This document shows positions 9,417 to 63,587 of a stretch of DNA of 64,000 nt, one piece after another; the first letter of the stretch is position 1, and the number at the start of each line of letters is the position of its first letter. The stretch is taken from assembly GCF_001718695.1 (NCBI RefSeq), contig NZ_CP013422.1, positions 620,001 to 684,000 of the forward strand. The letters run 5' to 3'. Origin of the DNA: Burkholderia ubonensis. GTDB taxonomy: Bacteria > Pseudomonadota > Gammaproteobacteria > Burkholderiales > Burkholderiaceae. The notes below the pieces were generated by a model. It saw nothing but the letters and a program-made list of their open reading frames with translations, searched no databases and had not been told where the DNA came from. A program made the position numbers and the translations under genes.

Positions 9417-9554
9417 GGCGTGTCGGATGCTGGGCGGAAAACCGACATGGTGCCTCGATTGTCAAAATTTTTCGACCGGTGTGGCCGCCCGGACGGTCTT
9501 ATCGACGGCCGCGCCGAACCTTACACTGCGGCGTTTCGTTCGAGTTCCGCCGAC

Positions 9555-35087: not shown

Positions 35088-37077
<1,990 letters not shown>

Positions 37078-37099: not shown

Positions 37100-38179
37100 T
37101 CAGGCGGTGGTGCGCGCCGCCGCCGGCAATGCGCTGCGCGCGGGGCCGCGCGTCAGGCGCCGCTCGAAGCCGTACCAGCTCGCGGTCGCATACGCGAGCG
37201 TGATCGCGAGCGCAAGCACGGCGGTGAGGTAGCGGTTCAGGTGCAGCGGCCAGAGCGCGTACAGCACGCTCAGGTGGATCAGGTACACGGTGTAGCTGAC
37301 GGTGCCCACGTAGACGAGCGCGGGGTTCGTCAGCACGCGCTGCACGAGGCCGCGGCCGCGCAGCGCGATCACGACGATCGACGTGCACAGCAGCAGCGAG
37401 ACGCTGTAGAGCGCCGCGTTCGACAGCGGCGTGTTCGCCGCGCGAAAGCGCGGGAACGACAGGTGCAGCCAGCCGAGGATCGCGAGCGACACGAGCGCGC
37501 CGGCGATCGCGAGCGGGTAGAACGGCTCCAGCGCGCGCCGGTCGCGCCGCAGCACGATCGCGAGCAGCGCGCCTGCGGCGAGCAGATCCATGCGGAACGG
37601 CGTCAGGTAGTAGATCGGCCAGAACGAGTCGAACCACGGCGTCGCGAGCGCGCGCAGCGCCGGCGCCGCGACGATCAGCGCGGCCGCAATCCAGAGCAGC
37701 GCGCGCTCCGAGCACCACAGCACGACGAACGGCCAGAAGATGTAGAACTGCTCCTCGACCGCGAGCGACCACAGCACGTTGAGGCTGTCGTGGCCGATGC
37801 CGCCGAGCGACAGCCCGATGTTGGTCGAGAAGAACGCGAACCACGGCCAATGCGGCAGCCAGCTCGCGCCGAACAGCAGCGTCGACACGACGAGCAGCAG
37901 CACGTACGGCGGCAGGATGCGGCGCACGCGCCGCGCGTAGAAATGGCTGAAGTAGGACTGCCCGCGCGCCTTGCGCTCGAGCAGGATGCCGGTGATCAGC
38001 AGCCCGCTCAGCACGAAGAACAGGTCGACGCCCATCCACAGCGGCGCCTTCAGCGCATGCTGCAGGAACACCGCGCCTACGGCGATCGCGCGCAACCCGT
38101 CGAGCTGGACGATGCGGCCGTGGTGCGGCACGGGCGTGTCGGCGGCGCGCCGCGCAATCGATGCGTGAACGTCATTCAT
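37100..38179 (-). CDS. bceO: Acyltransferase family 3 membrane protein (exopolysaccharide acylation)
   Basis: 359 residues, about ten hydrophobic segments. Typical OafA-type landmarks are RIVQLDGLRAIAVGAVFLQH near the N-terminus, GVDLFFVLSGLLITGIL, and SLAVEEQFYIFWPFVV. These proteins transfer acetyl groups to surface polysaccharide at the inner membrane; cepacian is heavily acetylated. First gene of the minus-strand bceO-N-M unit, opposite the propeller gene across a 397-base AT-richer gap that must hold both promoters. Confidence 0.88.
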   Translation of the reverse strand: MNDVHASIARRAADTPVPHHGRIVQLDGLRAIAVGAVFLQHALKAPLWMGVDLFFVLSGLLITGILLERKARGQSYFSHFYARRVRRILPPYVLLLVVSTLLFGASWLPHWPWFAFFSTNIGLSLGGIGHDSLNVLWSLAVEEQFYIFWPFVVLWCSERALLWIAAALIVAAPALRALATPWFDSFWPIYYLTPFRMDLLAAGALLAIVLRRDRRALEPFYPLAIAGALVSLAILGWLHLSFPRFRAANTPLSNAALYSVSLLLCTSIVVIALRGRGLVQRVLTNPALVYVGTVSYTVYLIHLSVLYALWPLHLNRYLTAVLALAITLAYATASWYGFERRLTRGPARSALPAAARTTA

Positions 38180-38576: not shown

Positions 38577-40793
38577 TTGCAACGTCTGATACTGGCCGCC
38601 ATCGCGATGTGCGCGGCATGGCTGACGTGGGCCGCGCCGGCCGAAACGGTGCTGCCCGCGACGACGTCCTGGATCGGCAATACGTTCGGCTACGGCGACG
38701 GCTCCTGGACGCAGATCGACATCCGCGCGATCGCGGTGACGCCTGACGGCAAGGTGTATACGAACGCGCCGTGGGACGAGAGCGGCGCGGAAGCGAGCGT
38801 CTACCAGGACGGCAAGATGCTCGGCTTCGCCGGCGGCACGCACGGCTGGGGCAACCTCGGCGGCAATGCGGTCGCGGTGAACGGCAAGTATGCGTACGTC
38901 GCGATCGGCGTCGGCAACGAGCGCGGCCACCTTGTGTCGCCCGGCATCTGGCCTGACAAGGGCAAGCAATGGTTCGGCATCTCGCGGCGCGCGCTCGGCG
39001 ACATGAAGCAGCCTGCGCCGTTTCGCGCCGCACCGCAGGTTGCGGCCGGCGGGCGCGCGGACGCCGGCCGCGCGCGGATGGCCGCGAGCTTCATGGTGAT
39101 GAACGAGGTGGCGGCGCCGGCACGCTCGGAGGTGGGCGAGTCGAAGGCGGAAGTCGGCGGTCTCGCGGCCGACGACAAGACGCTGTTCGCGACCAATCCG
39201 ACGCATGACGAAGTCGTCGTGTACGACGCCGAGACGATGCAGAAGAAGGGCGCGTGGAACGCGCACGAGCCGGGCCGGATCGCGCTCGCGGCCGACGGCA
39301 CGGTATGGCTGCTGACCGATACGCTGAACGGGCCCGCGCATCTCGTGCACCTGCGCGCGGATGGCCGCAGGATCGACGACGCGCCCACGCTGCCGGACAA
39401 CGCCGACGCGGTCGACGTCGCGGTCGATGCGAAAGGCCGCGTGCTCGTCGCCGACAACGGCCCGCGCCAGCAGGTCCTGATCTTCGCGAAAAGCGACAAG
39501 GGCTATGCGCTGTCGGGCACGCTCGGCGAGCGCGGCGGCATCTTCTCGGGCGCGGTGCCGGGCCGGCCGGGGCCGCAGCGCTTCAACGGGCTGACCAGCG
39601 TGGGCGTCGATCGCGCCGGCAACATCTACGTCGCGACCAACGGCATCGGGCCGCGCCACGACACGATCGGCGCGGGCCTCGGCGCGACGCTCGAGAGCTA
39701 CGCGCCGGACGGCAAGCTGCGCTGGCAGGTGCAGGGCCTGCTGTTCGTCGACGGCGCGTGGATGGACCCGGCGCGGCCGAACAGCGTGTACACGGGCAAC
39801 AAGCGCTTCGAGCTCGACCTGTCGAAGCCGCCCGGCCAGGAGTGGAAGTACGCGGGCTTCCTGTCGAACCGCTTCAAGTATCCGGACGATCCGGTGTTCC
39901 ACACCGACCAGTGGCCGGGCACGCCGATGGCGCGCCGGCTCGACGGCCGCACGTTCCTGTACCTGACCGACATGTACGCGGACCACCTGAAGATCTACCG
40001 CTTCGATCCGAAGCGCGACGGCGAGGTCGCGATTCCGTCGGGCCTGATCGCGGGCCGCGCGCGGCCGGTCGACAAGGTGCCGAACAAGCCGCCGGGCGGC
40101 GACTGGCTGTGGCGCGACGCGAACGGCAACGGCCGCCTCGACGCCGACGAGTTCGACATCAACACGACCGGCAAGGCGAAGGCGGGCGGCTGGGGCTGGT
40201 GGGTCGACACGAAGGGCGACATCTGGCGCACGAGCGACGTGCGCGGCATCCACCGGTTCCGCTACGGTGGCGTCGACAAGGCCGGCAACCCGGTCTACGC
40301 GTACGACAAGGTCACGACCTATCCGATGCCGCAGCCGTTCACGCAGCTGCGCCGCGCGCTCTACGAGCCGCAGACCGACACGCTGTACGTGACCGGCTAC
40401 ACGCCCGATGCGCCGCCGCAGCCCGGCATCAACAAGGAAGTCGGCCGCGTGCTGATCCGCTTCGACAAGTGGTCCACCGGCTCACCGGTCGCGCGCTACA
40501 CGGTCGCGCTGCCGTGGCAGCCGGACGCGAAGCCGATCCTGACGCTGGCGAGCATCACGGTCGAGGGCCGCTACATCTTCGCGGTGGAGCCGGTCGGCAA
40601 GATCCACGTGTACGACAAGGAAAGCGGCAAGGAGCTCGGCGTGATGAACCCGGGGCCTGAGGTCGGCCGGGCGTCCGGCTGGGTCGACGTGCCGTTCGGC
40701 ATCAGCGCGTACCGGCGCGAGAACGGCGAGTACCTCGTGTTCGTCGAGGAAGACGCACGCGGCAAGGTGCTGATGTATCGCTGGAAACCGTGA
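38577..40793 (+). CDS. Secreted beta-propeller-like protein in the cepacian cluster
   Basis: 738 residues starting at TTG, 8 bases after a GGAGA site. A signal peptide (LILAAIAMCAAWLTWAAPA) is followed by repeated sheet-rich blades: IRAIAVTPDGKVYTNAPW, LTSVGVDRAGNIYVATNGIG, and others. It also contains an EF-hand-like DANGNGRLDADEFD. The NHL/SMP-30 propeller form suggests a periplasmic or secreted carbohydrate-binding or lytic role. Its place matches the letter bceP, but I cannot confirm that name. It ends against bceQ. Confidence 0.75.
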   Translation: MQRLILAAIAMCAAWLTWAAPAETVLPATTSWIGNTFGYGDGSWTQIDIRAIAVTPDGKVYTNAPWDESGAEASVYQDGKMLGFAGGTHGWGNLGGNAVAVNGKYAYVAIGVGNERGHLVSPGIWPDKGKQWFGISRRALGDMKQPAPFRAAPQVAAGGRADAGRARMAASFMVMNEVAAPARSEVGESKAEVGGLAADDKTLFATNPTHDEVVVYDAETMQKKGAWNAHEPGRIALAADGTVWLLTDTLNGPAHLVHLRADGRRIDDAPTLPDNADAVDVAVDAKGRVLVADNGPRQQVLIFAKSDKGYALSGTLGERGGIFSGAVPGRPGPQRFNGLTSVGVDRAGNIYVATNGIGPRHDTIGAGLGATLESYAPDGKLRWQVQGLLFVDGAWMDPARPNSVYTGNKRFELDLSKPPGQEWKYAGFLSNRFKYPDDPVFHTDQWPGTPMARRLDGRTFLYLTDMYADHLKIYRFDPKRDGEVAIPSGLIAGRARPVDKVPNKPPGGDWLWRDANGNGRLDADEFDINTTGKAKAGGWGWWVDTKGDIWRTSDVRGIHRFRYGGVDKAGNPVYAYDKVTTYPMPQPFTQLRRALYEPQTDTLYVTGYTPDAPPQPGINKEVGRVLIRFDKWSTGSPVARYTVALPWQPDAKPILTLASITVEGRYIFAVEPVGKIHVYDKESGKELGVMNPGPEVGRASGWVDVPFGISAYRRENGEYLVFVEEDARGKVLMYRWKP

Positions 40794-40804
40794 CGGACGG
40801 GAGC

Positions 40805-42271
40805 ATGGACAAAGGCATTCTCAAGAACGTTTCGATCAATTTCATCGGGCTGATCCTGCCGACCTTCGTGTCGCTGGTGACGGTGCCCGCGTACATCCAC
40901 GCGCTCGGCGTCGAGCGCTATGGCGTCGTCAGCCTCGTGTGGACGCTGATCGGCTATTTCGGGATCCTCGATCTCGGGATGAGCATGGCCGCGCAGAACC
41001 ACATTTCGAAGGCGCTCGCGAGCGGTGACGATGCGCAAAGCGCGCGCGTGTTCTGGAGCGCGTTCTGGCTGAACCTCGGCACCGGCATCGCGGGCGGGCT
41101 GCTGATCTACTTCGGCGCGTTCGTCTATACCGCGTATTTCACGAAGGTGACGGCCGCGATGCAGCACGAGGTGTATCTCGCGCTGCCGTGGCTCGCGCTC
41201 GCGATTCCGCTCGCGAACGTGTCGTGGGTGTTCGCCGGCGCGATCAACGGCGCCGAGCGCTTCGGCGTGTTCAACACGAACCAGACGATCGGCACGTTCC
41301 TGTTCCAGCTGCTGCCGCTCGGCGCCGCATGGTGGATCGCGCCGAACCTGCAGACGGTGCTCGCCGCGGCGGTCGTGGCGCGCCTGATCGCCGCGGTGAT
41401 GCTCGGCCACGCGAGCATCAAGGTGCTCGGCATCCGCCGCATCGACCCGCCGCAATGGGGCACCGCGAAGGGGCTGTTCAACTTCGGCGGCTGGATGCTG
41501 ATCGCGAGCACGACCAGCATGATCGCCGACACGCTCGACCGCGTGATGCTCGGCGCGGGCATGGGCGCGAAGTTCGTCACCTACTACACGGTGCCGCAGA
41601 ACCTCGTCACGCGCCTGAACATGCTGCCGAACGCGCTCGTGCGCACGCTGTTCCCGCGCCTGTCGGCGGTCGGCCGCGACCACGCGGATGCGCTCGCGCG
41701 CCAGTCGCTCGAATTCCTGAACGGCGTGTTCACGCCGGTCGCCGTCGTCGCGATCTTCGCGCTCGGGCCGTTCCTGGCGCTGTGGGTCGGCGCCGATCTC
41801 GCCGCGCATTCGGCGCCGGTCGGGCGCGTGCTGGTGATCAGCGTGTGGCTCGTCGGGCAGGCGAGCGTCACGCGCATCCTGATCCAGTCGCAGGTCAATC
41901 CGTCCCGCGCGGCGTTTGCCGGCCTCGTCCAGATGCCGTTCTTCGTCGGCGGGCTGTGGCTCGGCATCCACTATTTCGGGCTGATCGGCGCGGCGGTCGT
42001 CGTCGCCGCGCGCGCGCTCGTCGATTACGGCGTGCTGCTCTACCTGTCGGCGATCCGGATGCGGGCGATCGTGCTCGACATGGCCGCGCATCTCGCGTTC
42101 CTGCTTGCGAGCCTCTATCTTGCGCATACATGGCCGGGGCTCGTCGAATCGATCGTCATCTGCGCGGTCGTGCTGGCGCTGAACGTCGCGTGGTCGCTCA
42201 CGATGACGCCGGGGCTGCGCACGCTGGCCCGCGGCCTGATCGTCCGTCTCAATGCGAGGAAAACAGTATGA
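40805..42271 (+). CDS. bceQ: Wzx-type polysaccharide repeat-unit flippase
   Basis: 488-residue membrane protein with about twelve helices of the MATE/MOP fold (ISINFIGLILPTFVSLVTVP-like opening, then LGMSMAAQNHISKAL). It should flip the lipid-linked cepacian unit across the inner membrane. ATG 40805 is preferred; an in-frame GTG at 40790 overlaps the end of the preceding gene. Its stop overlaps the bceR start (ATGA). Confidence 0.88.
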   Translation: MDKGILKNVSINFIGLILPTFVSLVTVPAYIHALGVERYGVVSLVWTLIGYFGILDLGMSMAAQNHISKALASGDDAQSARVFWSAFWLNLGTGIAGGLLIYFGAFVYTAYFTKVTAAMQHEVYLALPWLALAIPLANVSWVFAGAINGAERFGVFNTNQTIGTFLFQLLPLGAAWWIAPNLQTVLAAAVVARLIAAVMLGHASIKVLGIRRIDPPQWGTAKGLFNFGGWMLIASTTSMIADTLDRVMLGAGMGAKFVTYYTVPQNLVTRLNMLPNALVRTLFPRLSAVGRDHADALARQSLEFLNGVFTPVAVVAIFALGPFLALWVGADLAAHSAPVGRVLVISVWLVGQASVTRILIQSQVNPSRAAFAGLVQMPFFVGGLWLGIHYFGLIGAAVVVAARALVDYGVLLYLSAIRMRAIVLDMAAHLAFLLASLYLAHTWPGLVESIVICAVVLALNVAWSLTMTPGLRTLARGLIVRLNARKTV

Positions 42272-44755
42272 ATCGCGATCTGGCGGAACACGCCATCCTG
42301 AACGCGGCCACGGTCGAAGCGCCGGTGACGGCCGACGCCGTCGCGCCGCGCCAGGCCGCGTCCCGCGAACCCGCGGGCGCGCGCCATCCGGCCCGGCCGC
42401 TGCGCGTCGCGATCGTCCACGACTGGCTCGTCACGTACGCGGGCGCCGAACGCGTGCTCGAACAGATCATCGCGTGCTTTCCCGACGCGGACCTGTTCAG
42501 CCTCGTCGATTTTCTCGACGACCGCGCGTTCGTGCGCGGCAAGCCGGTCACGACGTCGTTCATCCAGAAGCTGCCGTTCGCGCGCACCAAGTACCGCAGC
42601 TACCTGCCGCTGATGCCGCTCGCGATCGAGCAGCTCGACGTGTCGGGCTACGACCTCGTGATCTCGAGCAGCCATGCGGTCGCGAAGGGCGTGCTGACCG
42701 GGCCCGACCAGGTGCACATCAGCTACGTGCATTCGCCGATCCGCTATGCGTGGGACCTGCAGCACCAGTACCTGGAGCAGTCGAACCTCACGCACGGGCC
42801 GAAATCGCTGCTCGCGCGGATGATCCTGCATTACATCCGCAACTGGGACACGCGCACCGCGAACGCGGTCGACGGCTTCGTCGCCAACTCCGCGTTCATC
42901 GCGCGGCGCATCAGGAAGGTGTACCAGCGCGACGCGGCGGTGATCTTCCCGCCGGTCGACGTCGACGCGTTCTCGCTGAACGCGGCCAAGGAGGATTTCT
43001 ACCTGACCGCGTCGCGGATGGTGCCGTACAAGAAGATCGACCTGATCGTCGAGGCGTTCTCGCGGATGCCCGAGCGCAAGCTGGTCGTGATCGGCGACGG
43101 GCCGGAAATGCAGCGGGTCCGCGCGAAGGCCGGGCCGAACGTCGAGATCATGGGCTACCAGCCGTTCGCGGTGCTGCATGACCGGATGCGCCGCGCGAAG
43201 GCGTTCGTGTTCGCGGCCGAGGAGGATTTCGGCATCTCGGTGGTCGAGGCGCAGGCGTGCGGCACGCCCGTGATCGCGTACGGCAAGGGCGGCGCGCTCG
43301 AAACCGTGCTCGACCCGCAGTCGGGCGCGCGGCCGACCGGCCTCTTCTTCGACGAGCAGACCGCGCGCGCGATCGTGTCGGCGGTCGACGAATTCGAACG
43401 CGCGCCGCAGCGCTTCACGCCGCAGGCGTGCCGCGCGAATGCGGAGCGGTTTTCCGCCGACACGTTCCGGCGGCGCTTTCTCGACTACGTCGAGGCCGCG
43501 CTGCCCGGCGCGACCGCGCAGCAGGGCGCCGGTATTGCAGGGCGCCGGTATTGCGCAGATGTCTGCGCCGCCGCCCGCCGCGCGCGGCCCGGCGACGCTG
43601 GTGCTCGACCAGAGCGGCGTGCTGGGCGGCGCCGAGCTGTCGCTGCTCGAGATCATGAAGCACATGCGCGCGAACGCCGACGTGCTGCTGTTCGCCGACG
43701 GGCCGTTTCGCGCGGCGCTCGACGAGATCGGCGCGCGCGTCGACGTCGTCGAGCAGGGCGCGCTCGCGGGTGTGCGCAAGCGGGGCGGCGTGTCGGCCGG
43801 CGCGGTGAAGCAGCTGCTGCGGCTCGTGCGCGACGTCGCGCGCCGCGCGCGCCGCGCCGAGGTGATCTACGCGAACACGCAGCGTGCGATGGTGGTCGCC
43901 GCGCTGGCCGGGCGGCTCGCGCGCAAGCCGGTGGTCTGGCATCTGCGCGACATCGTCAGCGACGATCACTTCGGCCGCAAGCAGCTGCTCGCGATCAAGC
44001 ATTGCGCGCGGCTCGGCGTGACGCGGGTGATCGCGAACTCCGACGCGTCCGCGCAGGCGTTCCGCGCGCTGACCGGCTTCACGCCGCAGCACGTCGACGT
44101 CGTGTTCAACGGCATCTCGGCCGAGCCGTTCGACGCGCTGGCCGGCGTCAGCCAGGCCGCGCTGCGCGCGCGCTTCGGGCTGCCCGAGCACGCGTGGCTG
44201 GTCGGCTCGTTCAGCCGGCTCGCGCGCTGGAAAGGCCAGCACCTGCTGCTGGAAGCCGCCGCCGGCCATCCGGACATGCACGTCGTGCTGGTCGGCGCGC
44301 CGCTGTTCGGCGAGGACGACTACGCGGCGCAGCTGCACGAAACCGTCGCGCGGCACGGGATGGACGACCGCGTGCATTTCCTCGGCTTCCAGCGCGATGT
44401 GGCTGCGTGCATGAAGGCGGTCGACGTCGTCGCGCACACGTCGATCACGCCCGAGCCGTTCGGGCGCGTGATCGTCGAGGGGATGCTCGCGAAGCGGCCG
44501 GTCGTCGCGGCGCGCGCGGGCGGCGTCGTCGAGATCATCGAGCACGACGACAACGGCCTGCTGTGCGAGCCCGGCAACGCGGCCGCGCTGGCCGATGCGC
44601 TCGGCAGGCTCAAGCACGACGGCGCGCTGCGCGAGCGCCTCGTCGCGAGCGGGCGGGCGACCGCGGTGCGGCGGTTCGGCACCGAAACCTATGTCGAGCG
44701 GGTCGAGAAGATCCTCGCCGATACGGCGAAGGCCGCGAAGGCGAAGAAGCGCTAG
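42268..44755 (+). pseudogene. bceR: Two-domain glycosyltransferase BceR, broken by a 16-bp tandem duplication
   Basis: The first half from ATG 42268 is a GT4/GT1-type enzyme (VAIVHDWLVTYAGAERVLEQI, then AEEDFGISVVEAQACGTPVI). The second half, in the +1 frame to 44755, is another (LVLDQSGVLGGAELSLLEIM, then ITPEPFGRVIVEGMLAKRPV). At 43521-43552 a 16-base unit is present twice. Removing one copy joins both halves in one 823-residue frame, which fits the bifunctional BceR I recall. As written, the first domain runs into about 425 residues of shadow sequence. The second half alone could start at ATG 43559 but has no ribosome site. Confidence 0.85.
43521..43552 (+). repeat. 16-bp direct tandem duplication inside bceR
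   Basis: Bases 43521-43536 and 43537-43552 are identical (GCAGGGCGCCGGTATT). The unit is not a multiple of three and shifts the frame by one. Confidence 0.97.
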
Positions 44756-44807
44756 GCGCGAGGCGTCGAGGCGTGTCGATTCTTGTCGGCACGAGGCGGC
44801 GAGGAGG

Positions 44808-44851
44808 GGCCCTCATGCAGTGGTGCGCTGCATGAGGGCCTCTTGTTGTTT
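44808..44851 (+). terminator. Intrinsic terminator after bceR
   Basis: A perfect 13-bp stem (44808-44820 with 44828-44840), 7-base loop, followed by TCTTGTTGTTT. Confidence 0.82.
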
Positions 44852-45094
44852 GGCGCGCACGATGCGGCGCGCGGGGCGTCATCGTAGCCGTAGTCGAAGA
44901 TGCGCAACGCCGGCTCGTCGATCGGTGCTCTCTCGGCGGGTGCGGTTTTGCTTCTGGTTCCGCTTTGGTTTCTATGTGCCGCGTCGGGGCAGCCGACGCG
45001 TGGCTGTGGGCGGGAGCGAGTGGTCGTTTGCGGGGTAGCACGAGACGCGGCCGGAAGGCGGCGCTGATGCAGAGCCGGCTCGGTCCGCCTCTGG

Positions 45095-45193
45095 GGCAAC
45101 TGCGGCAACAGCGGCAACAGCGGCAACAGCGGCAACAGCGGCAACAGCGGCAACAGCGGCAACAGCGGCAACCCCGGCAACCCCGGCAACTGC
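45095..45193. repeat. 9-bp VNTR, eleven units
   Basis: Eleven contiguous 9-base units: seven GGCAACAGC, flanked by GGCAACTGC, two GGCAACCCC and GGCAACTGC. It lies in the 690-base gap between bceR and bceS, where no convincing gene is seen. The repeat keeps several frames open on both strands, which creates false long frames (QQR or LLP repeats). Confidence 0.95.
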
Positions 45194-45444
45194 CGTGCAG
45201 CGGTCCGGCCGGCGTCGCGGCGGTTCCGCGTGGCGCCTGCATGCACGTGCGTGGAGCTTGCGCGCCGGCGTGTGCATGCTATCCAAGCGTACGCAGGACA
45301 GCATCCCATCCAAGCCCAGCGCTTCGCCGACGCTGCAAGCGCCAACTGTCCGCCCCATCGCGACGCACCTTGGCGGGCGGATCGCCGCGCTGCCGCTGAA
45401 ACGGCGCCGCCCGGCCGAAGTCGGGCCGAGCGGGAGTGCCGCGT

Positions 45445-46617
45445 TCAGGCGGCCCGTTCGGGCGCCGGCGCGACGACGCGCGCGCCGCGCGACGGCTTGA
45501 GGCTTGCCGACCACGTCATCGCGGGCCGTTCGAACAGCCGGTAGAACAGGTAGGCGACCGGAATCGCGAGCGCCATGAACGCGAACGACGGCCAGATCGA
45601 CAACTGCAGTTCGGAGCGATAGAGCACCGAGCCCAGGCAGACGAACAGCGGCAGGTGGATCAGGTACAGCGAATAGCTGAAATCGCCGAACCAGCCGAGC
45701 ATGCGCAGTGGCGGCGTGGTGCGCGGCGGCCGGGCGAGCGCGCGGTACAGGAAGCACGCGAAGCCGGCCGCCCATAGCTGGAACGCGCCGTACTGGCCGT
45801 AGCGGAACGCCGCGCAGCCGGCGGCGAGCAGCACGGCGGCCGCGGCGTACCACGCGCGCGACGGCGCGGCGGCCCCGTTCTTCTGCTGCGCGCGCACGTC
45901 CGCGATCCACGCGCCGATCGTCCACGACAGCCAGTACGACGTGAAGAACTGCAGGTCGTGCCGTTCGAGCAGCCAGGCCGACGCGACGTTGACGAGCGCG
46001 ATGCCGGCCACGACGGCAGGCATGCCGATGCGCCGCCGGATCGCGAACAGCAGCGGATAGATCGCGTAGAACTGCACTTCGAGCGACAGCGTCCACAGCG
46101 CGCCGTTCGAGCCGTACGTGTAGCCGGCGACGCCCTGCAGCGAGAACAGGTTCACGAGGAACGCGCTCAGGCCGACGTCGCGGATCTTGTGGCTGACGGG
46201 CTCGATCTGCAGGCTGATCGCGTCGAGCGCGAGCGTGAACAGCAGCGCGGCGAGCAGCACCGGATAGATGCGCGCGAAGCGGCGCGCCCAGAAATTCGGC
46301 GCGTTCAGCCGGTAGGCGGGATCGGCGGCGAGCTTGAGCGCCGCGTTGCGGTGGATGCAGTAGCCGCTGATCACGAAGAAGATCGGCACGCCGGCCGAGC
46401 CCCACGCGAACGGAAACGTCAGGTAGCCGACGATCACGCCCGGGTCGAGCGCGTGGCCGTAAGCGCGATGGAAGCTTTGCATCCCGACCCAGACGACTTG
46501 CCGGCAGTGGAAATAGGCGACGAGCAGCGCCGCGAAGCCGCGCATCGCGTCGATCACGTGCTCCTTGTGATCGGCGGCGGGCGGCGCATTCAAAGTCGAT
46601 CCGCTGAATGCTTGCAT
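45445..46617 (-). CDS. bceS: Acyltransferase family 3 membrane protein (exopolysaccharide acylation)
   Basis: 390 residues from ATG 46617, which has AAGGAA upstream. Acyltransferase-3 landmarks: VIDAMRGFAALLVAYFHCRQ, VPIFFVISGYCIHRN, and SLEVQFYAIYPLLFAI. About ten membrane helices. Second of three such enzymes here, fitting multi-site acetylation of cepacian. It diverges from the 47-residue gene across 216 AT-richer bases. Confidence 0.85.
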   Translation of the reverse strand: MQAFSGSTLNAPPAADHKEHVIDAMRGFAALLVAYFHCRQVVWVGMQSFHRAYGHALDPGVIVGYLTFPFAWGSAGVPIFFVISGYCIHRNAALKLAADPAYRLNAPNFWARRFARIYPVLLAALLFTLALDAISLQIEPVSHKIRDVGLSAFLVNLFSLQGVAGYTYGSNGALWTLSLEVQFYAIYPLLFAIRRRIGMPAVVAGIALVNVASAWLLERHDLQFFTSYWLSWTIGAWIADVRAQQKNGAAAPSRAWYAAAAVLLAAGCAAFRYGQYGAFQLWAAGFACFLYRALARPPRTTPPLRMLGWFGDFSYSLYLIHLPLFVCLGSVLYRSELQLSIWPSFAFMALAIPVAYLFYRLFERPAMTWSASLKPSRGARVVAPAPERAA

Positions 46618-46833
46618 GCGATTCGGTTCCTTGCGACGGATGAAGGGGAAGTTTCGCACCATCGTAATCCGCAAGAATTCGCGCAATGAATAAAAAAATC
46701 CCGTCGTGGAATAATCGCATTCCGGATTGCGGTTTTATGTAGGGACGATATCGGTTTCAGCTCGCGGCCAATTATTTGTCGATTTTTTTCTGATAGCTTG
46801 AAGCTCCAGTTGATAGACGCAAGGAGCGGCAAG

Positions 46834-47052: not shown

Positions 47053-47214
47053 GATTATCCATTAATCGAACCGGCGGCGCGATTAAGCGTTGCCGTAAAT
47101 AGCGGCGGGCTGAATTCAATGTGCCGTTGAATCGTGCCGCGCCATCCGGACATTCATTGTGCCGTATCGCGAAACGATGCGACGCGGCGCGCTCAACGCA
47201 ATCAGGATGCAATC

Positions 47215-48102
47215 ATGTTGAAAGTTACCAAGGCCGTGTTCCCCGTTGCCGGTCTCGGCACACGGTTCCTGCCGGCGACCAAGGCGAGTCCGAAGGAGAT
47301 GCTGCCCGTCGTCGACAAGCCGTTGATCCAGTATGCGGTCGAGGAAGCGATCAATGCCGGCATCACGGAAATGATCTTCGTCACCGGTCGCAGCAAGCGC
47401 GCGATCGAGGATCACTTCGACAAGTCATACGAAATCGAGGCGGAGCTCGAGGCGCGCGGCAAGGAGAAGCTGCTCGACCTGGTGCGCAGCATCAAGCCGA
47501 GCCATGTCGACTGCTTCTACGTGCGCCAGCCGGAAGCGCTCGGTCTCGGCCACGCGGTGCTGTGCGCGGAGAAGCTGGTGCACGGCGAGCCGTTCGCGGT
47601 GATCCTCGCCGACGACCTGCTGCACGGCGAGCAGCCGGTGCTCAAGCAACTCGTCGACGTGTTCAACCACTATCACAGCTCGGTGATCGGCGTCGAAACC
47701 ATCGCGCGCGAGGACAGCCGCTCGTATGGCGTCATCGAGGGCCGCGAGTGGGAAGAGGACATCATCAAGCTGTCGGGCATCATCGAGAAGCCGTCGCCCG
47801 AGGATGCGCCGTCGAATCTCGGCGTGGTCGGCCGCTACGTGTTCATGCCGACGCTGTTCGATCACCTGCGCAAGATCAAGCCCGGTGCGGGCGGCGAGCT
47901 TCAGCTGACCGATGCGGTGCAGTCGCTGCTCGCGCACGAGCAGGTGCTCGCGTATCGCTACTACGGCACGCGTTTCGATTGCGGCAGCAAGATCGGCTAC
48001 CTCAAGGCGACCGTCGAGCTGGCGCTCCAGCATCCGGAAGTGAGCCGCGAGTTCGAGGCATACCTGCGGACCTGTTTGCCCGCGCTGGCTGCCGTCGCTT
48101 AG
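47215..48102 (+). CDS. bceT: UTP-glucose-1-phosphate uridylyltransferase
   Basis: 295-residue GalU-type enzyme that makes UDP-glucose, the source of the glucose and glucuronate donors for cepacian. [21 protein letters not shown] is the nucleotide-binding motif; [18 protein letters not shown] and [11 protein letters not shown] follow. ATG 47215 is used because homology starts with [11 protein letters not shown] terminator follows. Confidence 0.94.
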
Positions 48103-48843: not shown

Positions 48844-49962
48844 TCAGCGCGCAGACGCGCTCGGCCGCGCCACGAAGTACCGCGCGAGCATCGCGGCGAT
48901 CGGCTTCTTGCGGTCCAGCAGGCGTTTTTCGAGATAGCGCCAGGAAAGATGCGCGAGCAGCACGGCGAGCCCGAATTGCAGCAGCTCGGGCAGCGCGTCG
49001 CGCACGAACGCGGGCATCGGCACGCGCGCGAACAGCGCGGGCATCGTGCCGAAGCGCGCGGGGATCAGGTTGTGGAACAGGTAGAAGCCGTAGCTGATCG
49101 TGCCGAGGTAGACGAGCGGCGGCCACTCCAGCAGCGCGACGGCGGGATGGTCGGGCTCGCGGACGATCCACAGCAGCAGCGCGCCGAGCGACGCGGAGAG
49201 CCCGAGATCCGCGAGCCCCGTGACGACGTCCGGCAGCGGCGTGAGCGCGGGCAGCGCGAGAAAGAACACGACGCCCGCCGCGCCGACCCATCCCGGCGGC
49301 ACGCGACGCAGGACGCCGCGGCCGTGATCCGCGAGCGCCATCGCGCCGATGCCGCCGAGCGCGATCAGCGCGAAATTCCACGGGGAAAACGCGTAGATCA
49401 GCACCGGCGACGCATCGGCGAGATAGAGGCCGAGATGCACGGCCGCGCAGAGCGCGACCGCCGCGATGCCGAGCGCGATGTGCCGCGACGCCCGCGTCGC
49501 GAGCAGCGCGAGCGGCGCGATCAGGTAGAACTGCTGCTCGACGGCGAGACTCCAGAAATGCGACGTGGTGCCGGGCCAGCCGTTCTTGACGACGCCGATC
49601 CACAGGTTCGACAGGAACAGGGCGTGCCACGCGAGGCCGAGGTCGACGCCGCGCTGGTAGAACAGCGCATGCGCGATCGCGAGCGACGCGAGCAGCAGGT
49701 AATACACGGGGAAGATGCGCAGCGCGCGCTTGGCGAGGAACAGGCTGAGCGCATGGCAGCGCGACAACGTGCCGCGCTCGATCGCGTGGCGGCTGCGGTG
49801 CAGCTCGCCCACGATCAGGAAGCCGCTGATGTAGAAAAACGTCCACACGCCAAGCCTCCCCACGTCGATCGCGAGGACGTGGCCCTTGTGGGACAGGAAG
49901 ACGAGGATGACCGCGATGGCTCGCAGGCCGTCGAGTCCCTTGACGTGTCTGACTTCGCGCAT
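48844..49962 (-). CDS. bceU: Acyltransferase family 3 membrane protein (exopolysaccharide acylation)
   Basis: 372 residues with the family opening KGLDGLRAIAVILVFLSHKG, then GVWTFFYISGFLIVGEL and SLAVEQQFYLIAPLAL. About ten helices. Third acyltransferase of the cluster. ATG 49962 is used because upstream in-frame sequence has no homology. The 280-base gap to the HU-like gene contains both promoters. Confidence 0.85.
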   Translation of the reverse strand: MREVRHVKGLDGLRAIAVILVFLSHKGHVLAIDVGRLGVWTFFYISGFLIVGELHRSRHAIERGTLSRCHALSLFLAKRALRIFPVYYLLLASLAIAHALFYQRGVDLGLAWHALFLSNLWIGVVKNGWPGTTSHFWSLAVEQQFYLIAPLALLATRASRHIALGIAAVALCAAVHLGLYLADASPVLIYAFSPWNFALIALGGIGAMALADHGRGVLRRVPPGWVGAAGVVFFLALPALTPLPDVVTGLADLGLSASLGALLLWIVREPDHPAVALLEWPPLVYLGTISYGFYLFHNLIPARFGTMPALFARVPMPAFVRDALPELLQFGLAVLLAHLSWRYLEKRLLDRKKPIAAMLARYFVARPSASAR

Positions 49963-50242
49963 GAAGGCATCCGGGGCACTGAGCGAGGCCAGTATAGGTG
50001 CGCAAATATCGAACGTAATTCGCGTTCGGCTGCGTTCGAGCACTGCGTTCGACGCATACGTGCAGGCGTTTTTCGATGCTCGAACGTCGGCGAAGTCGGT
50101 CGAGCGCAACAAAACCTGCAGAAAACCCGCGGAAAACGCGTAAAAGTACTCCACGAAGCGTCGACGCGCTTGTAGAATCCGGCGTTGAAGCGCGCACGTC
50201 GTGCGTTTCGTGTATCCAACGACCACACCTGGTAGGAGAAAC

Positions 50243-50686
50243 ATGGCGACTTCCGCAAAAAAGGTGGCCAAGAAGGCTGCCGCACCGGCCAAGAAAGTGG
50301 CTGCCAAAAAAGCAGCGCCCGCGAAGAAAGTAGTGGCCAAGAAGGCCGTCGCGAAGGCGCCCGCCGCTCCGACGCCGCTGAAGGACAAGTTCACGAAGGC
50401 ATCGCTCGCGGCGCACATCGCTGAGCGCGCAGCTGTCGAAGTGAAGGCTGTCAAGGCAGTGCTGGCCGCACTCGAGAACGTCGTGCTGGGCTCGGTCCAC
50501 AAGAAGGGCGCAGGCGAGTTCACGCTGCCGGGTCTGCTGAAGATCACGGCGCAAGCCGTGCCGGCGAAGAAGAAGCGCTTCGGCAAGGATCCGTTCACGG
50601 GCGTCGAGCGCTGGTTCCCGGCCAAGCCGGCCAGCGTGCGCGTGAAGGCACGTGCGCTGAAGAAGCTGAAGGACGCGGCTGCGTAA
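50243..50686 (+). CDS. HU-family DNA-binding protein with lysine-rich N-terminal tail
   Basis: 147 residues. The first ~50 are Ala/Lys/Pro repeats (KKVAKKAAAPAKKVAAKK), like a eukaryotic H1 tail. The rest is an HU/IHF fold (KASLAAHIAERAAVEVKAVK, then PGLLKITAQAVPAKKKRFGK). It likely compacts the nucleoid and binds DNA through both parts. A strong AGGAGA site precedes ATG 50243 and an intrinsic terminator follows, so it is a single, probably well-expressed gene. Confidence 0.9.
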   Translation: MATSAKKVAKKAAAPAKKVAAKKAAPAKKVVAKKAVAKAPAAPTPLKDKFTKASLAAHIAERAAVEVKAVKAVLAALENVVLGSVHKKGAGEFTLPGLLKITAQAVPAKKKRFGKDPFTGVERWFPAKPASVRVKARALKKLKDAAA

Positions 50687-50738
50687 TGCAGCGTGACGGT
50701 CGCCGCGTCCACGCCGGCGACCGTTGCAACGTCCGACG

Positions 50739-54322: not shown

Positions 54323-54342
54323 TTGCGCAAACTGTCTATAAT
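54323..54342 (+). promoter_or_regulatory. Candidate fdnG promoter with TTGCGCAA palindrome and TATAAT
   Basis: A perfect -10 box TATAAT is at 54337-54342, 39 bases before the fdnG ATG. No -35 box is correctly spaced. Instead an 8-base palindrome TTGCGCAA lies at 54323-54330, which suggests an activator- or repressor-controlled start. Confidence 0.5.
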
Positions 54343-54380
54343 TGCTTTCAATTCCCCCCCACAATAAAGCCGAGACCATC

Positions 54381-57300
54381 ATGCTACAAATGTCCCGGCG
54401 CCAGTTCCTGAAAGTGACCGCCACGTCGCTCGCCGGATCGAGTCTTGCCCTCATGGGCTTCTCGCCGACCGAAGCGCTCGCGGAGGTCCGTCAGTACAAG
54501 CTGGCGCGAACCGTCGAAACGCGCAACACCTGTCCATACTGCTCCGTCGGCTGCGGCATCCTGATGTACAGCCTGGGCGACGGCGCGAAGAATGCGCAGT
54601 CCAGCATCATCCACATCGAAGGCGATCCCGACCACCCGGTCAATCGCGGCACGCTGTGCCCGAAGGGCGCGAGCCTGATCGACTTCATCCACAGCCCGAG
54701 CCGCCTGATGCATCCGGAATACCGTGCACCGGGCTCGGACAAGTGGGAGCGCATCTCGTGGAGCGACGCGCTCGACCGGATCGCGAAGCTGATGAAGGCC
54801 GACCGCGACGCGAACTTCGTCGAGACGACCGACGACGGCGCGAAGGTCAACCGCTGGCTGACGACCGGCATGCTGGCTGCGTCGGCGGGCAGCAACGAGG
54901 TCGGCTACCTGACGCACAAGGTCATCCGCAGCACGGGGATGCTCGCGTTCGACAATCAGGCGCGTGTCTGACATGGCCCGACGGTGGCAGGTCTTGCCCC
55001 GACGTTTGGCCGTGGAGCGATGACGAACCATTGGGTCGACATCAAGAACGCGGACGTGATTCTCGTGATGGGCGGCAATGCAGCCGAGGCCCATCCGTGC
55101 GGATTCAAGTGGGTGACGGAGGCGAAGGCGCACCGCAAGGCGCGGCTGATCGTCGTCGACCCGCGCTTTACGCGCACCGCCTCGGTGGCGGACTATTACG
55201 CGCCGATTCGCACCGGCACCGACATCGCCTTCCTGGGCGGCGTCATCAACTACCTGCTGACGAACGACAAGATCCAGCATGAGTACGTGAAGAACTACAC
55301 GGACTTCTCGTTCATCGTGCGCGAGGATTTCGCGTTCAACGACGGCATCTATTCCGGCTACGACGCGGAGAAGCACGCGTACCCGGACAAGTCGAGCTGG
55401 GACTACGAGCGCGGCGACGACGGCTTCGTGAAGGTCGACCCGACGCTCGCGCACCCGCGCTGCGTCTACAACCTGCTGAAGCAGCACTACGCGCGCTATA
55501 CGCCCGAGATGGTCCAGCAGGTGTGCGGCACGCCGAAGGACAAGTTCCTGAAGGTCTGCGAGATGCTCGCGACGACGGCCGTGCCCGGCCGCGCCGGCAC
55601 GATCCTGTACGCGCTCGGCTGGACGCACCACTCGATCGGCGCGCAGATGATCCGCACCGGCGCGATGGTGCAGCTGCTGCTCGGCAACATCGGCATCGCC
55701 GGCGGCGGGATGAACGCGTTGCGCGGCCACTCGAACATCCAGGGGCTGACCGACCTCGGCCTGATGTCGAACCTGCTGCCGGGCTACATGACGCTGCCGA
55801 TGCAGTCCGAGCAGGACTTCGAAGGCTACATCAAGAAGCGCACGCAACTGCCGCTGCGGCCGAACCAGCTCAGCTACTGGAAGAACTACAAGGCCTTTCA
55901 CGTCAGCTTCATGAAGTCGTGGTGGGGCGATGCGGCGACCGCCGAGAACAACTGGGGCTACGACTACCTGCCGAAGCTCGACAAGCAGTACGACCTGCTG
56001 CAGACGATCGAGCTGATGAATGCCGGCAAGATGAACGGCTATATCTGCCAGGGCTTCAACCCGCTCGCGGCGGCGCCCTCGAAGGTGAAGACGGCCGCAG
56101 GGCTCGCGAAGCTGAAGTGGCTCGTGATCATGGATCCGCTCGCGACCGAGACGTCGGAGTTCTGGAAGAACCACGGCGACTACAACGACGTCGATTCGTC
56201 GAAGATCCAGACCGAAGTGTTCCGTTTGCCCACCACGTGCTTCGCGGAGGAAAACGGCTCGCTGGTCAGTTCGAGCCGAGTGCTGCAATGGCACTGGAAG
56301 GGCGCGGAGCCGCCGGGCGAGGCGCGCAGCGATCTCGAGATCATGTCGGGGCTGTTCCAGCGCATGCGCGATGCGTACAAGAAGGACGGCGGCAAGTTCC
56401 CCGACCCGATCGTCAACCTGACCTGGCCGTACGCGAACCCGGAAAGCCCGACGCCCGAAGAGCTCGCGAAGGAGTTCAACGGGAAGGCGCTGGCCGACCT
56501 GCCCGATCCGAAGGATCCGGCCAAGACGCTCGTGAAGAAGGGCGAGCAGCTCGCCGCGTTCGCGCAGCTGAAGGACGACGGCACGACGGCGAGCGGCTGC
56601 TGGATCTTCTGCGGGTCGTGGACGCAGGCCGGCAACCAGATGGGACGGCGCGACAACTCGGATCCGACCGGCATCGGCCAGACGCTCGGCTGGGCGTGGG
56701 CATGGCCCGCGAACCGGCGGATCCTGTACAACCGCGCATCGTGCGACGTCAACGGCAAGCCGTTCGACCCGACCCGGAAACTGGTCGGCTGGAACGGCAG
56801 CGCGTGGTCGGGCCCGGACATTCCCGACTACAAGGCCGACGAGTCGCCCGAGACCGGCATGGGCCCGTTCATCATGAACCCGGAAGGCGTCGCACGCTTC
56901 TTCGCGCGCGCCGGGATGAACGAAGGTCCGTTCCCCGAGCACTACGAGCCGTTCGAGACGCCGCTTGCCGCGAACCCGTTCCATCCGAACAACCCGCAGG
57001 CGCTGAACAACCCGGCCGCCCGCGTGTTCCCGGGCGACCGCGCGTCGTTCGGCAAGGTCGCGGAATTCCCGCACGTCGCGACGACCTATCGCCTGACCGA
57101 GCATTTCCACTACTGGACCAAGCATGCGCGGCTGAACGCGATCATCCAGCCCCAGCAATTCGTCGAGATCGGCGAAGACCTCGCGAAGGAAGTCGGCGTC
57201 GCGCATGGCGATCGCGTGAAGGTGTCGTCCAAGCGCGGCCACATCGTCGCGGTCGCGCTCGTCACGAAGCGGATCAAGCCGCTGACGGTCGACGGCAAGA

Positions 57301-57452
57301 AGGTCCAGACGGTCGGCATCCCGTTGCACTGGGGCTTCAAGGGGTTGACGAAGCCCGGCTATCTCGCCAATACCCTGACTCCGTCCGTGGGCGACGGCAA
57401 CTCGTACACACCGGAATTCAAGTCGTTCCTGGTGAAGGTCGAAAAGGCGTAA
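54381..57452 (+). CDS. fdnG: Formate dehydrogenase-N alpha subunit, selenocysteine-containing (in-frame UGA at 54969-54971)
   Basis: Oxidises formate in the periplasm at a molybdenum bis-MGD centre. The frame is continuous from ATG 54381 to 57452 (1,023 residues) if the UGA is read as selenocysteine 197 in [18 protein letters not shown]. The N-terminus is a twin-arginine signal ([20 protein letters not shown]), and a [4Fe-4S] CPYCSVGCG...CPKG motif follows. The downstream part keeps full homology ([20 protein letters not shown], then [15 protein letters not shown]). A SECIS hairpin follows the UGA. Operon with fdnH and fdnI. Confidence 0.96.
54975..55011 (+). promoter_or_regulatory. Bacterial SECIS hairpin in fdnG
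   Basis: Starting three bases after the UGA, GGCC (54975-54978) can pair with GGCC (55008-55011). Above it CGG, a bulged U at 54985 and GGCA (54982-54989) pair with UGCC-CCG (54995-55001) around the loop GGUCU. The GGUCU loop and single bulged U are the features SelB recognises in E. coli fdhF and fdnG. Confidence 0.9.
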
Positions 57453-57462
57453 GGGGAACGAG

Positions 57463-58377
57463 ATGGCATTGCAATCGCTGGATATCAAGCGCGTCTCGGC
57501 CACCACCACGCCGCCGCCCACGGCGCGCGAGCCGGTGACCGGGAGCGTCGCGAAACTGATCGACGTATCGAAGTGCATCGGCTGCAAGGCGTGCCAGACG
57601 GCCTGCATGGAGTGGAACGACCTGCGCGACGAAGTCGGCACCAACGTCGGCGTGTATGACAACCCGGCCGACCTGTCGGAGCACTCGTGGACGGTGATGC
57701 GGTTCGCCGAATACGAGAACCCGGACGGCAACCTCGAATGGCTGATCCGCAAGGACGGCTGCATGCACTGCGAGGACCCGGGCTGCCTGAAGGCGTGTCC
57801 GTCGCCGGGCGCGATCGTGCAGTACAACAACGGGATCGTCGATTTCCACGAGGAGAACTGCATCGGCTGCGGCTATTGCGTGACCGGCTGCCCGTTCAAC
57901 ATCCCGCGGATCTCGAAGAAGGATCATCGCGCGTACAAGTGCACGCTCTGCTCCGACCGCGTCGCGGTCGGCCAGGAGCCGGCCTGCGTGAAGACCTGCC
58001 CGACGGGCGCGATCGTGTTCGGCACCAAGGAGGACATGAAGCAGCACGCGGCCGAGCGGATCGAGGACCTGAAGGAGCGCGGCTTCGAGCACGCGGGGCT
58101 GTACGATCCGCAGGGCGTCGGCGGCACGCACGTGATGTACGTGCTGCACCACGCCGACAAGCCGTCGCTGTATCACGGCCTGCCGGACAACCCGTCGATC
58201 AGCCCGATGGTGAAACTGTGGAAGGGCTTCGCGAAGCCGCTGGCGGTCGCGGGCATCGCGCTGACGGCGCTCGCGGGCTTCTTCCACTACATCCGGGTCG
58301 GCCCGAACGAGGTGACCGACGAAGAGGAAGCCGCCGCCCGCGACGAGGCGCGACGCATCAAGGAGGACGTGAAATGA
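57463..58377 (+). CDS. fdnH: Formate dehydrogenase-N beta (iron-sulfur) subunit
   Basis: 304 residues with four ferredoxin-like cysteine groups: [43 protein letters not shown] and [20 protein letters not shown]. These carry electrons from FdnG to the haem b subunit. A C-terminal membrane helix ([19 protein letters not shown]) anchors it. Starts 10 bases after fdnG and overlaps fdnI by four (ATGA). Confidence 0.95.
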
Positions 58378-59000
58378 AGCATGACGACCCCAACCTGATC
58401 GTCCGCTACACGGCGAACGAGCGGACCAACCACTGGATCACCGCGCTCACGTTCGTGCTGCTCGCGCTGTCCGGGCTGGCGCTGTTCCATCCGTCGATGT
58501 TCTGGCTGACCGCGCTGTTCGGCGGCGGCCAGTGGACGCGGATCCTGCACCCGTTCGTCGGCCTCGTGATGTTCGTGTCGTTCGCGGTGATGGTGGTGCG
58601 CTACTGGCATCACAACGTGCTCGACCGGGACGACGTGCAGTGGCTGCGCCAGATCGACGACGTGCTCGCGAACCGTGAGGACAAGCTGCCGGAGATCGGC
58701 CGCTATAACGCCGGACAGAAGCTGCTATTCTTCGTGTTGGTGGCGTGTCTGGCGCTGTTGCTGCTGTCCGGCATCGTCATCTGGCGGCGGTATTTCTCGT
58801 TCTACTTCCCGATCGGGGTGATCCGGCTCGCGGCGGTAGTCCATGCCGTCGCGGCGTTCGTGCTGATCGTCGGCATCGTCACGCATATCTATGCGGCGCT
58901 GTGGGTCAAGGGCTCGATCGGGGCGATGGTGCGCGGCACGGTCACCCTCGGCTGGGCGCGCAAGCACCACCCGAAGTGGTTCCGTGAAAGCGTGAAGTAG
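58374..59000 (+). CDS. fdnI: Formate dehydrogenase-N gamma subunit (cytochrome b556)
   Basis: 208 residues, four membrane helices. Probable haem histidines are in [22 protein letters not shown] and [20 protein letters not shown]. It passes electrons from FdnH to menaquinone or ubiquinone. It overlaps fdnH and is followed by a strong terminator before fdhE. Confidence 0.94.
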
Positions 59001-59049
59001 CGCGCCGGGACGGGGTGGCGCGCCGCCCCGTCCGTCGTCGGAACCGCCG

Positions 59050-59080
59050 AAGCGCCGATACGTCGGCGCTTGTTTTTTTT
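59050..59080 (+). terminator. Intrinsic terminator between fdnI and fdhE
   Basis: AAGCGCCGA (59050-59058) pairs with TCGGCGCTT (59063-59071) around TACG, followed by T8. fdhE starts only 15 bases after the T-run, so its transcription must read through or be attenuated here. Confidence 0.92.
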
Positions 59081-59094
59081 GGGACAACACTCTC

Positions 59095-60046
59095 GTGACA
59101 CAACGCATTCTCGAACCGAATGAAATCTCGGCGCTCGATCATTCGGCGATCCCGCGCTTCCGCCTGCCGGAACGCGCAACGGTTTTCTCCGCGCGCGCCG
59201 CGCGCCTGCGCCAGCTCGCGGACCTGAACCCGATCAGCGGCTACCTGCGGCTGATGGCGGTGGTCGCGGACGCGCAGCATGCGGTGCTGCAGGACTTCGC
59301 CGCGCAGATGCCGTCGCAGGACGCGATCGCGCGCGCGCAGCAGCATTCGATGCCGCTCGTGCCGGCGCTCGGCGGCGAGCGCGATCCGCAATGGCGGGCC
59401 GTGCTGTATGAACTGCTCGACCGCGTCGAAGGCGCCGGGCTCGTCAATCCGCCGCTCGCGAAGCTGCTCGACCGGCTTCGCCTGATGGCGCCGGCCGAGC
59501 TCGACGCGCAGGCCGACGCGATCCTCGCGCTGCGCTTCGCCGAAGTCGACCCGGCCACCGCGCCGTTCCTGATGGCCGCGCTGCAGGTAGTCTGGACCGA
59601 CCTCGCGAGCCGCACGCAAGCCGGCCGACGTGCCGTTCCTCGACCAGCCGGGGCTGTGCCCGGTGTGCGGCATGCACCCGGTCGCGAGCGTCGTGCGCGT
59701 CGGCGGCCAGTACGAAGGCTACCGGTTCCTGCAATGCGGGCTGTGCACGACCGAATGGCACATGGTGCGCACCAAGTGCTCGCACTGCGATTCGACCAAA
59801 GGCATCGCGTATCACGGCATCGAGGGCGGCAGCGAAGCCGTCAAGGCCGAATCGTGCGACGAATGCAAGACGTACCGCAAGATCGGCTACCAGAACAAGG
59901 ACTACGACTTCGAGCCGCTCGCGGACGATCTCGCGAGCCTCACGCTCGACCTGCTGATGAACGAGGCCGGCTACCAGCGCAGTTCGCCGAACCCGCTGCT
60001 GTGGCCCGACGTGTCGCGCGAAGCGGACGCCGACCGAGCAGACTGA
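59095..60046 (+). pseudogene. fdhE: Formate dehydrogenase accessory protein FdhE with a one-base insertion
   Basis: The GTG-started frame encodes a normal FdhE N-terminal half (RFRLPERATVFSARAARLRQ) to about 59610. The zinc-binding half is in the +1 frame: LCPVCGMHP, CGLCTTEW, CSHC and CDECKTY, four CxxC pairs, ending at 60046. Removing one A from GCAAGCC at 59618-59619 gives SRTQPADVPFLDQPG and a 316-residue protein. FdhE is needed for activity of membrane formate dehydrogenases. Real lesion or sequencing error cannot be told from sequence. Confidence 0.88.
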
Positions 60047-60112
60047 GCGCGTGACACCGCAGCCCGCCGCGCGCCGGCTGCGGGCCGCGCATCGAAATGG
60101 AGCCACTTCGAC

Positions 60113-63471: not shown

Positions 63472-63491
63472 GTATCTGTTTTTTCTCCCAA

Positions 63492-63587
63492 GGAAGGCAT
63501 TCGTATCCGGTGGTACGGCCGGACTTCAAATCCGGTTAGGGGCGTCAGACGCTCCTGGGTAGGTTCGACTCCTGCTGCCTTCCGCCA
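63492..63587 (+). tRNA. selC: tRNA-Sec (anticodon UCA)
   Basis: 96 bases including encoded CCA. An eight-base-pair acceptor stem (GGAAGGCA with TGCCTTCC) and the anticodon loop CTTCAAA with UCA at 63526-63528 are diagnostic. A long variable arm (GGGGCGTCAGACGCTCC) and a GGTTCGACTCC T-arm follow. It starts 20 bases after the selB stop and completes the selenocysteine set. It appears intact. Confidence 0.97.

What the first reader, a model, noticed from the sequence alone, without database searches (positions are those of the whole stretch)
43521..43552. 16-bp tandem duplication breaks the cepacian glycosyltransferase bceR
An exact 16-base duplication puts the two glycosyltransferase halves of bceR in different frames; deleting one copy fuses them into one 823-residue protein. 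This predicts loss or change of cepacian assembly, and it is the kind of reversible lesion (slippage between direct repeats) that could switch a mucoid phenotype. I recall that a different small indel in another bce gene underlies non-mucoidy in B. cenocepacia J2315.
Basis: partly seen in the sequence, partly recalled or inferred. Interest (0 to 1): 0.75.

Follow-up and report, generated by a model that had tools for sequence, protein, structure and literature searches.

The report
Frameshifting 16-base duplication in cepacian glycosyltransferase
A short stretch of DNA has been copied twice in a row inside a gene that helps build the slimy coat sugar cepacian of a Burkholderia close to B. ubonensis, which should disable that gene in this isolate; it is a new example of a familiar kind of mutation.

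Summary
An exact 16-base tandem pair (43521-43552) lies in the linker between the two glycosyltransferase domains of bceR, cepacian cluster bce-II. The halves lie in different frames here; in 103 of 104 other loci (96 distinct) they align in one frame, and the exception has an assembly gap.

Correction: the upstream frame is not truncated. It stays open for 432 out-of-frame, Arg-rich residues.

Best reading: a recent spontaneous duplication that should abolish or impair cepacian assembly. Eleven bce-I-region and seven other bce-II ORFs align in one frame to B. ubonensis; one adjacent acyltransferase ORF is unresolved. Reversion by slippage is possible in principle, but nothing shows a switch. 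An assembly artefact cannot be excluded without reads: this assembly has more frame changes than its neighbour. Precedents (J2315 bceB, a bceF deletion, pneumococcal capsule duplications) make it a new member of a known kind.

In passing: fdhE, selA and selB are each split between frames in the same window, so selenocysteine insertion looks dead in this assembly.

The parts
42268..43520 (+). bceR upstream half, first glycosyltransferase domain, frame 1; its ATG overlaps the bceQ stop (42271)
43521..43536 (+). tandem unit, copy 1 (16 bases)
43537..43552 (+). tandem unit, copy 2 (16 bases), followed by two more matching bases 43553-43554
43537..44835 (+). out-of-frame, stop-free continuation of the upstream frame (432 aa, 34% Arg, 24% Ala, pI 12)
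   Evidence: no Pfam match in it at E 0.001; no relative among 8000 scored candidates
43586..44755 (+). bceR downstream half, second glycosyltransferase domain, frame 2 (43586 is the anchor residue used for comparison; no certain start codon)
40790..42271 (+). bceQ, flippase (PF01943); one frame, 98% to B. ubonensis LMG 20358
38577..40793 (+). large bce-II ORF without Pfam match, probably bceP (name inferred from order); one frame
37100..38179 (-). acyltransferase of bce-II (PF01757); one frame
36028..37068 (-). bceN, GDP-mannose 4,6-dehydratase (PF16363); one frame
35088..36041 (-). NAD-dependent epimerase/reductase, probably bceM; one frame
45445..46686 (-). acyltransferase, probably bceS; one frame; opposite strand to bceR
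47134..48102 (+). nucleotidyl transferase, probably bceT; one frame (real start perhaps 47215)
48844..50712 (-). further acyltransferase ORF (PF01757) beside the cluster, perhaps bceU; open here (622 aa) but aligns to LMG 20358 in two frames; not resolved which copy differs

Best explanation
A recent spontaneous replication-slippage event duplicated 16 bases in the interdomain linker of bceR. Translation from the normal start makes the first glycosyltransferase domain and then runs into the wrong frame for 432 Arg-rich residues; the second domain is not made, or only in traces from an internal start. Cepacian repeat-unit assembly then stops or is impaired, so the isolate should be cepacian-poor. 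Shown: the duplication, the frame split in this assembly, single-frame relatives, the open frames of the other bce ORFs checked. Inferred: slippage as the cause, presence in the living isolate, loss of function, the phenotype.
For: Exact tandem beyond chance. The halves align in one frame in 103 of 104 relative loci, 96 of the 104 being distinct; the exception L076 has a 100-N gap. Linker lengths of those 103 are all multiples of 3 (36-111 nt); the window's is 67 nt. A one-frame B. ubonensis protein with 97% N-half identity exists (P0123, 820 aa, cluster of 179) and carries a linker four residues longer than six other database proteins, which by eye resembles the window's. dN/dS of the halves against LMG 20358 is 0.27 and 0.25; between LMG 20358 and B. 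stagnalis 0.26 and 0.16, so no clear decay. 11 of 11 bce-I-region ORFs and 7 of 7 other bce-II ORFs align in one frame. A bceN mutant of P. phymatum is non-mucoid (PMC7378592, passage).
Against: No raw reads, second isolate or phenotype; sequencing technology unknown. The assembly shows more frame changes than its neighbour: 7 of 142 conserved genes, against 2 of 134 in the reverse test; one of the 7 is also one of the 2, so its direction is unknown, and the other of the 2 is the fused sel ORF of the window. In the window-to-LMG 20358 comparison bceR has a higher dN/dS than all five neighbours measured (0.21, 0.09, 0.07, 0.05, 0), and the second half exceeds its own baseline; relaxed constraint for longer is possible, though an imported-looking stretch confounds it. 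ORF 48844-50712 aligns in two frames. No bceR knockout was seen in the passages read.
Confidence: 0.74

Rival explanations
1. Assembly or sequencing artefact: an uncollapsed overlap or local error doubled 16 bases and the isolate's gene is intact.
For: 7 of 142 conserved genes in 310 kb show a frame change against LMG 20358. The duplicated allele was not found elsewhere. An uncollapsed contig overlap would give just such an exact tandem (recalled); the sequencing method is unknown.
Against: No excess of such tandems: 6 of 23 perfect tandems in 310 kb have a period not a multiple of 3, and only this one is above 11. Three of the 7 frame changes are neighbours in one functional module (fdhE, selA, selB), which looks like biology. 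Homopolymer runs at the frame-changing sites examined are at most 5 bases, apart from an 8-base run near the start of fdhE.
Confidence: 0.15
2. Reversible phase switch: the tandem pair is gained and lost by slippage at appreciable frequency and turns cepacian on and off.
For: Reversible tandem duplications in capsule genes are described for pneumococcus (PMC4243769, PMC4022640, passages). Mucoid/non-mucoid variation is described in the genus (PMC3865030, PMC12096841, passages). The linker tolerates length change (36-111 nt).
Against: Two copies only, no array. No period-16 tandem in 104 loci of other species or strains. [quoted passage not shown] Any tandem duplication can revert, so revertibility alone does not make a switch.
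Confidence: 0.07
3. Gene fission: the two domains are now made separately and both work.
For: In-frame starts for the second half exist near the junction: TTG 43535 with a 5-of-6 Shine-Dalgarno-like hexamer ending 9 bases upstream, and ATG 43559 (3 of 6). Both halves look constrained.
Against: 0 of 104 relative loci have split halves, the N-gap of L076 aside. The upstream frame ends only after the second half, so there is no stop-start coupling. TTG is a weak start (recalled). A recent lesion explains the constraint equally well.
Confidence: 0.04

Closest known systems
bceB frameshift of B. cenocepacia J2315 (cepacian non-producer)
   Same: A frameshift knocks out a glycosyltransferase gene of the cepacian pathway (PMC3584063, PMC3584217, passages).
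   Different: Other gene and cluster; here a tandem duplication in bceR; phenotype here unknown.
10-bp deletion in bceF of a B. multivorans non-mucoid variant
   Same: Small frame-changing indel in a bce gene of a non-mucoid variant (PMC12096841, passage).
   Different: Deletion, in a tyrosine autokinase gene, obtained after prolonged stationary phase in the laboratory.
Spontaneous tandem duplications in pneumococcal capsule genes (type 3 locus, cap8E/wchA, tts)
   Same: Tandem duplication inside a polysaccharide-synthesis ORF (PMC4243769, PMC4022640, passages; Waite 2001 and 2003 seen only as references).
   Different: There described as reversible; here untested. Other organism and polymer.
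Intact BceR, 'bifunctional glycosyltransferase' (PMC8231446, passage)
   Same: Same locus, both domains recognisable, 94-95% identical to B. ubonensis LMG 20358.
   Different: Not one open frame in this window.

Membership tests
BceR (cepacian bifunctional glycosyltransferase) | Lies in bce-II directly after bceQ | tested here: met
   ATG 42268 overlaps the stop of the flippase ORF 40790-42271; bceN-, acyltransferase- and bceT-type genes around
BceR (cepacian bifunctional glycosyltransferase) | Two GT4-type glycosyltransferase domains | tested here: met
   PF00534 in each half, in different frames
BceR (cepacian bifunctional glycosyltransferase) | One uninterrupted reading frame of about 820 aa | tested here: not met
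   Halves in frames 1 and 2 in the window; aligned in one frame in 103 of 104 relative loci
Inactivation by tandem duplication in a polysaccharide gene | Exact tandem duplication, length not a multiple of 3, inside the ORF | tested here: met
Inactivation by tandem duplication in a polysaccharide gene | Relatives lack the duplication | tested here: met
   0 of 104 loci with a perfect period-16 tandem at the linker (the N-run of L076 disregarded)
Inactivation by tandem duplication in a polysaccharide gene | Loss of polymer | not testable with these tools
   no phenotype data
Phase-variable contingency locus | Repeat number varies between strains or within a culture | tested here: inconclusive
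   No such tandem in 104 loci, but no second strain of this species and no reads
Phase-variable contingency locus | Reversion at high frequency | not testable with these tools
   needs cultures or reads

The most novel reading that the evidence does not exclude
The tandem pair is a low-frequency reversible switch of cepacian production in this Burkholderia, using the length-tolerant linker between two glycosyltransferase domains as the place where gain and loss of a copy turns the enzyme off and on.
Probability: 0.07. Interest if true: 0.55.

Novelty: new member of a known kind. Interest (0 to 1): 0.3.

Why it matters
It predicts from sequence that an isolate whose other checked bce genes are open makes little or no cepacian, and adds bceR to the bce genes reported to be hit by small indels (bceB, bceF). 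It also warns that a gene caller may report an 855-residue 'BceR' of about normal length whose second half is nonsense, because the wrong frame is open in this GC-rich gene.

Tried and rejected
Programmed frameshifting: the sequence view showed me no obvious slippery run at the junction; no dedicated motif search was made. Gene fission: not seen in relatives. Duplicated allele in other strains: no protein with the out-of-frame tail among 8000 scored candidates; no near-identical stand-alone second half among the best 120 of 1691 hits (best 92%, a partial protein). Weak evidence, since pseudogenes are often not annotated and the collection is clustered at 90%. Plasmid collection: 4 records match, all Burkholderia, 81.6-88.9% identical, none with a gene listed under the match. 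Selection as a clock: branch counts N/S (window 5/4 and 19/20; LMG 20358 7/14 and 6/9) are too small, and the second half carries a stretch nearer to another genome. Alignment A1 mixed strands and was not used for counts. One search was a pattern guessed before I had seen the sequence and says nothing. 'STOP' rows (5 of 12 and 3 of 5 'broken' rows) were not followed up; I count only frame changes.

Shorter or broken bceR entries exist in the protein collection: P0004 (753 aa), P0154 (505), P0193 (588), P0194 (595) and P0010 (387, a second-half piece). Some may be sequencing errors; I do not take them as evidence of a hot spot.

Full report
What is there. Window 43521-43554 holds two exact, adjacent copies of a 16-base unit plus two more matching bases. 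No perfect tandem of period 14-60 appeared in 40 order-3 Markov simulations of the window. In 310 kb of this genome including the window, 23 perfect tandems of period 10-80 were found; 6 have a period that is not a multiple of three, and only this one exceeds 11.

Which gene. The pair lies inside the gene after the flippase gene bceQ (40790-42271), in a cluster with a GDP-mannose dehydratase, an epimerase, acyltransferases and a nucleotidyl transferase, i.e. cepacian cluster bce-II as described in PMC7378592 (passages). Each half carries a Glycos_transf_1 domain, fitting the 'bifunctional glycosyltransferase BceR' of PMC8231446 (passage). Names bceM, bceP, bceS, bceT and bceU are inferred from order and domains. 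The genome is a Burkholderia close to B. ubonensis: the first half is 97% identical to P0123 and 95% to LMG 20358.

What the pair does. Up to the pair the coding signal is in frame 1, after it in frame 2 (GC3; tblastn). Frame 1 stays open to 44835, giving an 855-residue product whose last 432 residues are 34% arginine with pI 12, without Pfam match at E 0.001 and without a relative among 8000 scored candidates. The open wrong frame is not special: the same alternative frame is stop-free across the second half in 16 of 24 same-genus relatives. The next cluster gene downstream is on the other strand, so no polar effect is expected.

Relatives. 24 of 24 other same-genus genomes searched have the site, and in 24 of 24 the halves share one frame and one stop. 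Of 80 loci from the named genome collection (the call kept the best 80 of 576), 79 have the halves aligned in one frame; the exception, L076, has a 100-N gap between them. The two sets overlap in 8 loci, so 96 of 104 are distinct. Of the 79, five need a word: in L066 and L098 the second-half alignment appears to run past the stop; L096 and L099 have shorter frames (613 and 596 aa) with only part of the second half matched; L102 has a stop after 89 residues of the first half. Linker lengths are multiples of three in 103 of 104, from 36 to 111 nt; the window's is 67 nt. Part of the window's extra length seems to be standing variation, since P0123 has a linker four residues longer than six other proteins that by eye resembles the window's. 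Other short perfect tandems (period 6-10) occur in or within 60 bases of the linker in 15 relative loci (13 distinct) besides L076, with the halves still in one frame.

How recent. dN/dS against LMG 20358 is 0.27 and 0.25 for the two halves; between LMG 20358 and B. stagnalis it is 0.26 and 0.16. The first half shows no change, the second a possible rise. Five neighbouring genes measured the same way have lower values (0.21 to 0), so bceR is a fast gene here or has been relaxed for some time; an imported-looking stretch in the second half confounds this. The rest of the pathway looks open: 11 of 11 bce-I-region ORFs align in one frame to LMG 20358 (10 of them scanned against Pfam, 8 with a match), and 7 of 7 other bce-II ORFs do too. 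A further acyltransferase ORF beside the cluster (48844-50712) is open here but aligns in two frames; which copy differs was not resolved.

Is it real? Testing conserved genes of the neighbour genome on this one gave 7 frame changes in 142 genes; the reverse test gave 2 in 134. One of the 2 is the same gene pair as one of the 7 (about 590 kb), so its direction is unknown; the other is the fused sel ORF of the window. So this assembly carries more frame changes than its neighbour. Three of the seven are fdhE, selA and selB, adjacent and functionally linked, each in one frame in 4 of 4 further relatives; that clustering favours biology over random error. The sequencing method is unknown, and an uncollapsed contig overlap could also leave an exact tandem. 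I put the artefact at 0.15.

Mechanism. Slippage is the usual source of such tandems (established knowledge). Loss of the second domain should stop or impair repeat-unit assembly. Reversion by slippage is possible in principle; for pneumococcal isolates with insertions of at most nine bases a paper expects at most about 10^-5 (PMC4022640, passage). Nothing here shows a switch, and PMC3865030 (passage) considers the mucoid-to-nonmucoid switch under stress likely irreversible.

Known or new. Precedents are in print: bceB of J2315 (PMC3584063, PMC3584217, passages), a bceF deletion (PMC12096841, passage) and pneumococcal tandem duplications (PMC4243769, PMC4022640, passages). The listings (6 of 6 papers; 20 of 60; 3 of 3; 10 of 58; 12 of 15; 5 of 5) showed no title or abstract start reporting a bceR duplication; passages of eight papers were read, none in full. 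New member of a known kind.

Noticed in passing
window 54342-63583: Formate dehydrogenase/selenocysteine module: a molybdopterin oxidoreductase with an in-frame TGA (54969-54971, V-U-H-G context, recalled as the Sec site of FdoG), iron-sulfur and cytochrome subunits, then fdhE, selA and selB, each split between two frames by small indels (fdhE has more near its start, by an 8-base run), then tRNA-Sec (63492-63583). The three genes align in one frame in 4 of 4 further relatives; no other selA was found in the genome; selD is open elsewhere. Selenocysteine insertion looks dead while a selenoprotein gene remains, or this stretch is mis-assembled. Possibly more interesting than the finding given.
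   Followed up: partly
window about 44450-45190: The end of bceR and the space after it is 94.6-98.4% identical to L022 (a same-genus genome) but about 87% or unalignable to B. ubonensis LMG 20358, while 43700-44450 and 45450-46700 are 95.6-99.2% to the latter: looks like an imported tract (the L022 stretch held ends near 45250).
   Followed up: partly
window 45095-45190: 9-base unit repeated 10.7 times just after bceR, in a possible ORF (44965-45399) without Pfam match.
   Followed up: no
window 8565-10933: An MFS transporter ORF of LMG 20358 aligns here in more than one frame; a further possible broken gene, not checked in other relatives.
   Followed up: no
G000:C3 about 601.8 kb and 618.1 kb (outside the window): Two further conserved genes with a frame change against LMG 20358; genes not identified.
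   Followed up: no
P0004 (B. multivorans, 753 aa): A natural BceR about 70 residues shorter than the 821-823 aa entries, the missing part spanning the same linker: another length change at this junction, in frame.
   Followed up: no
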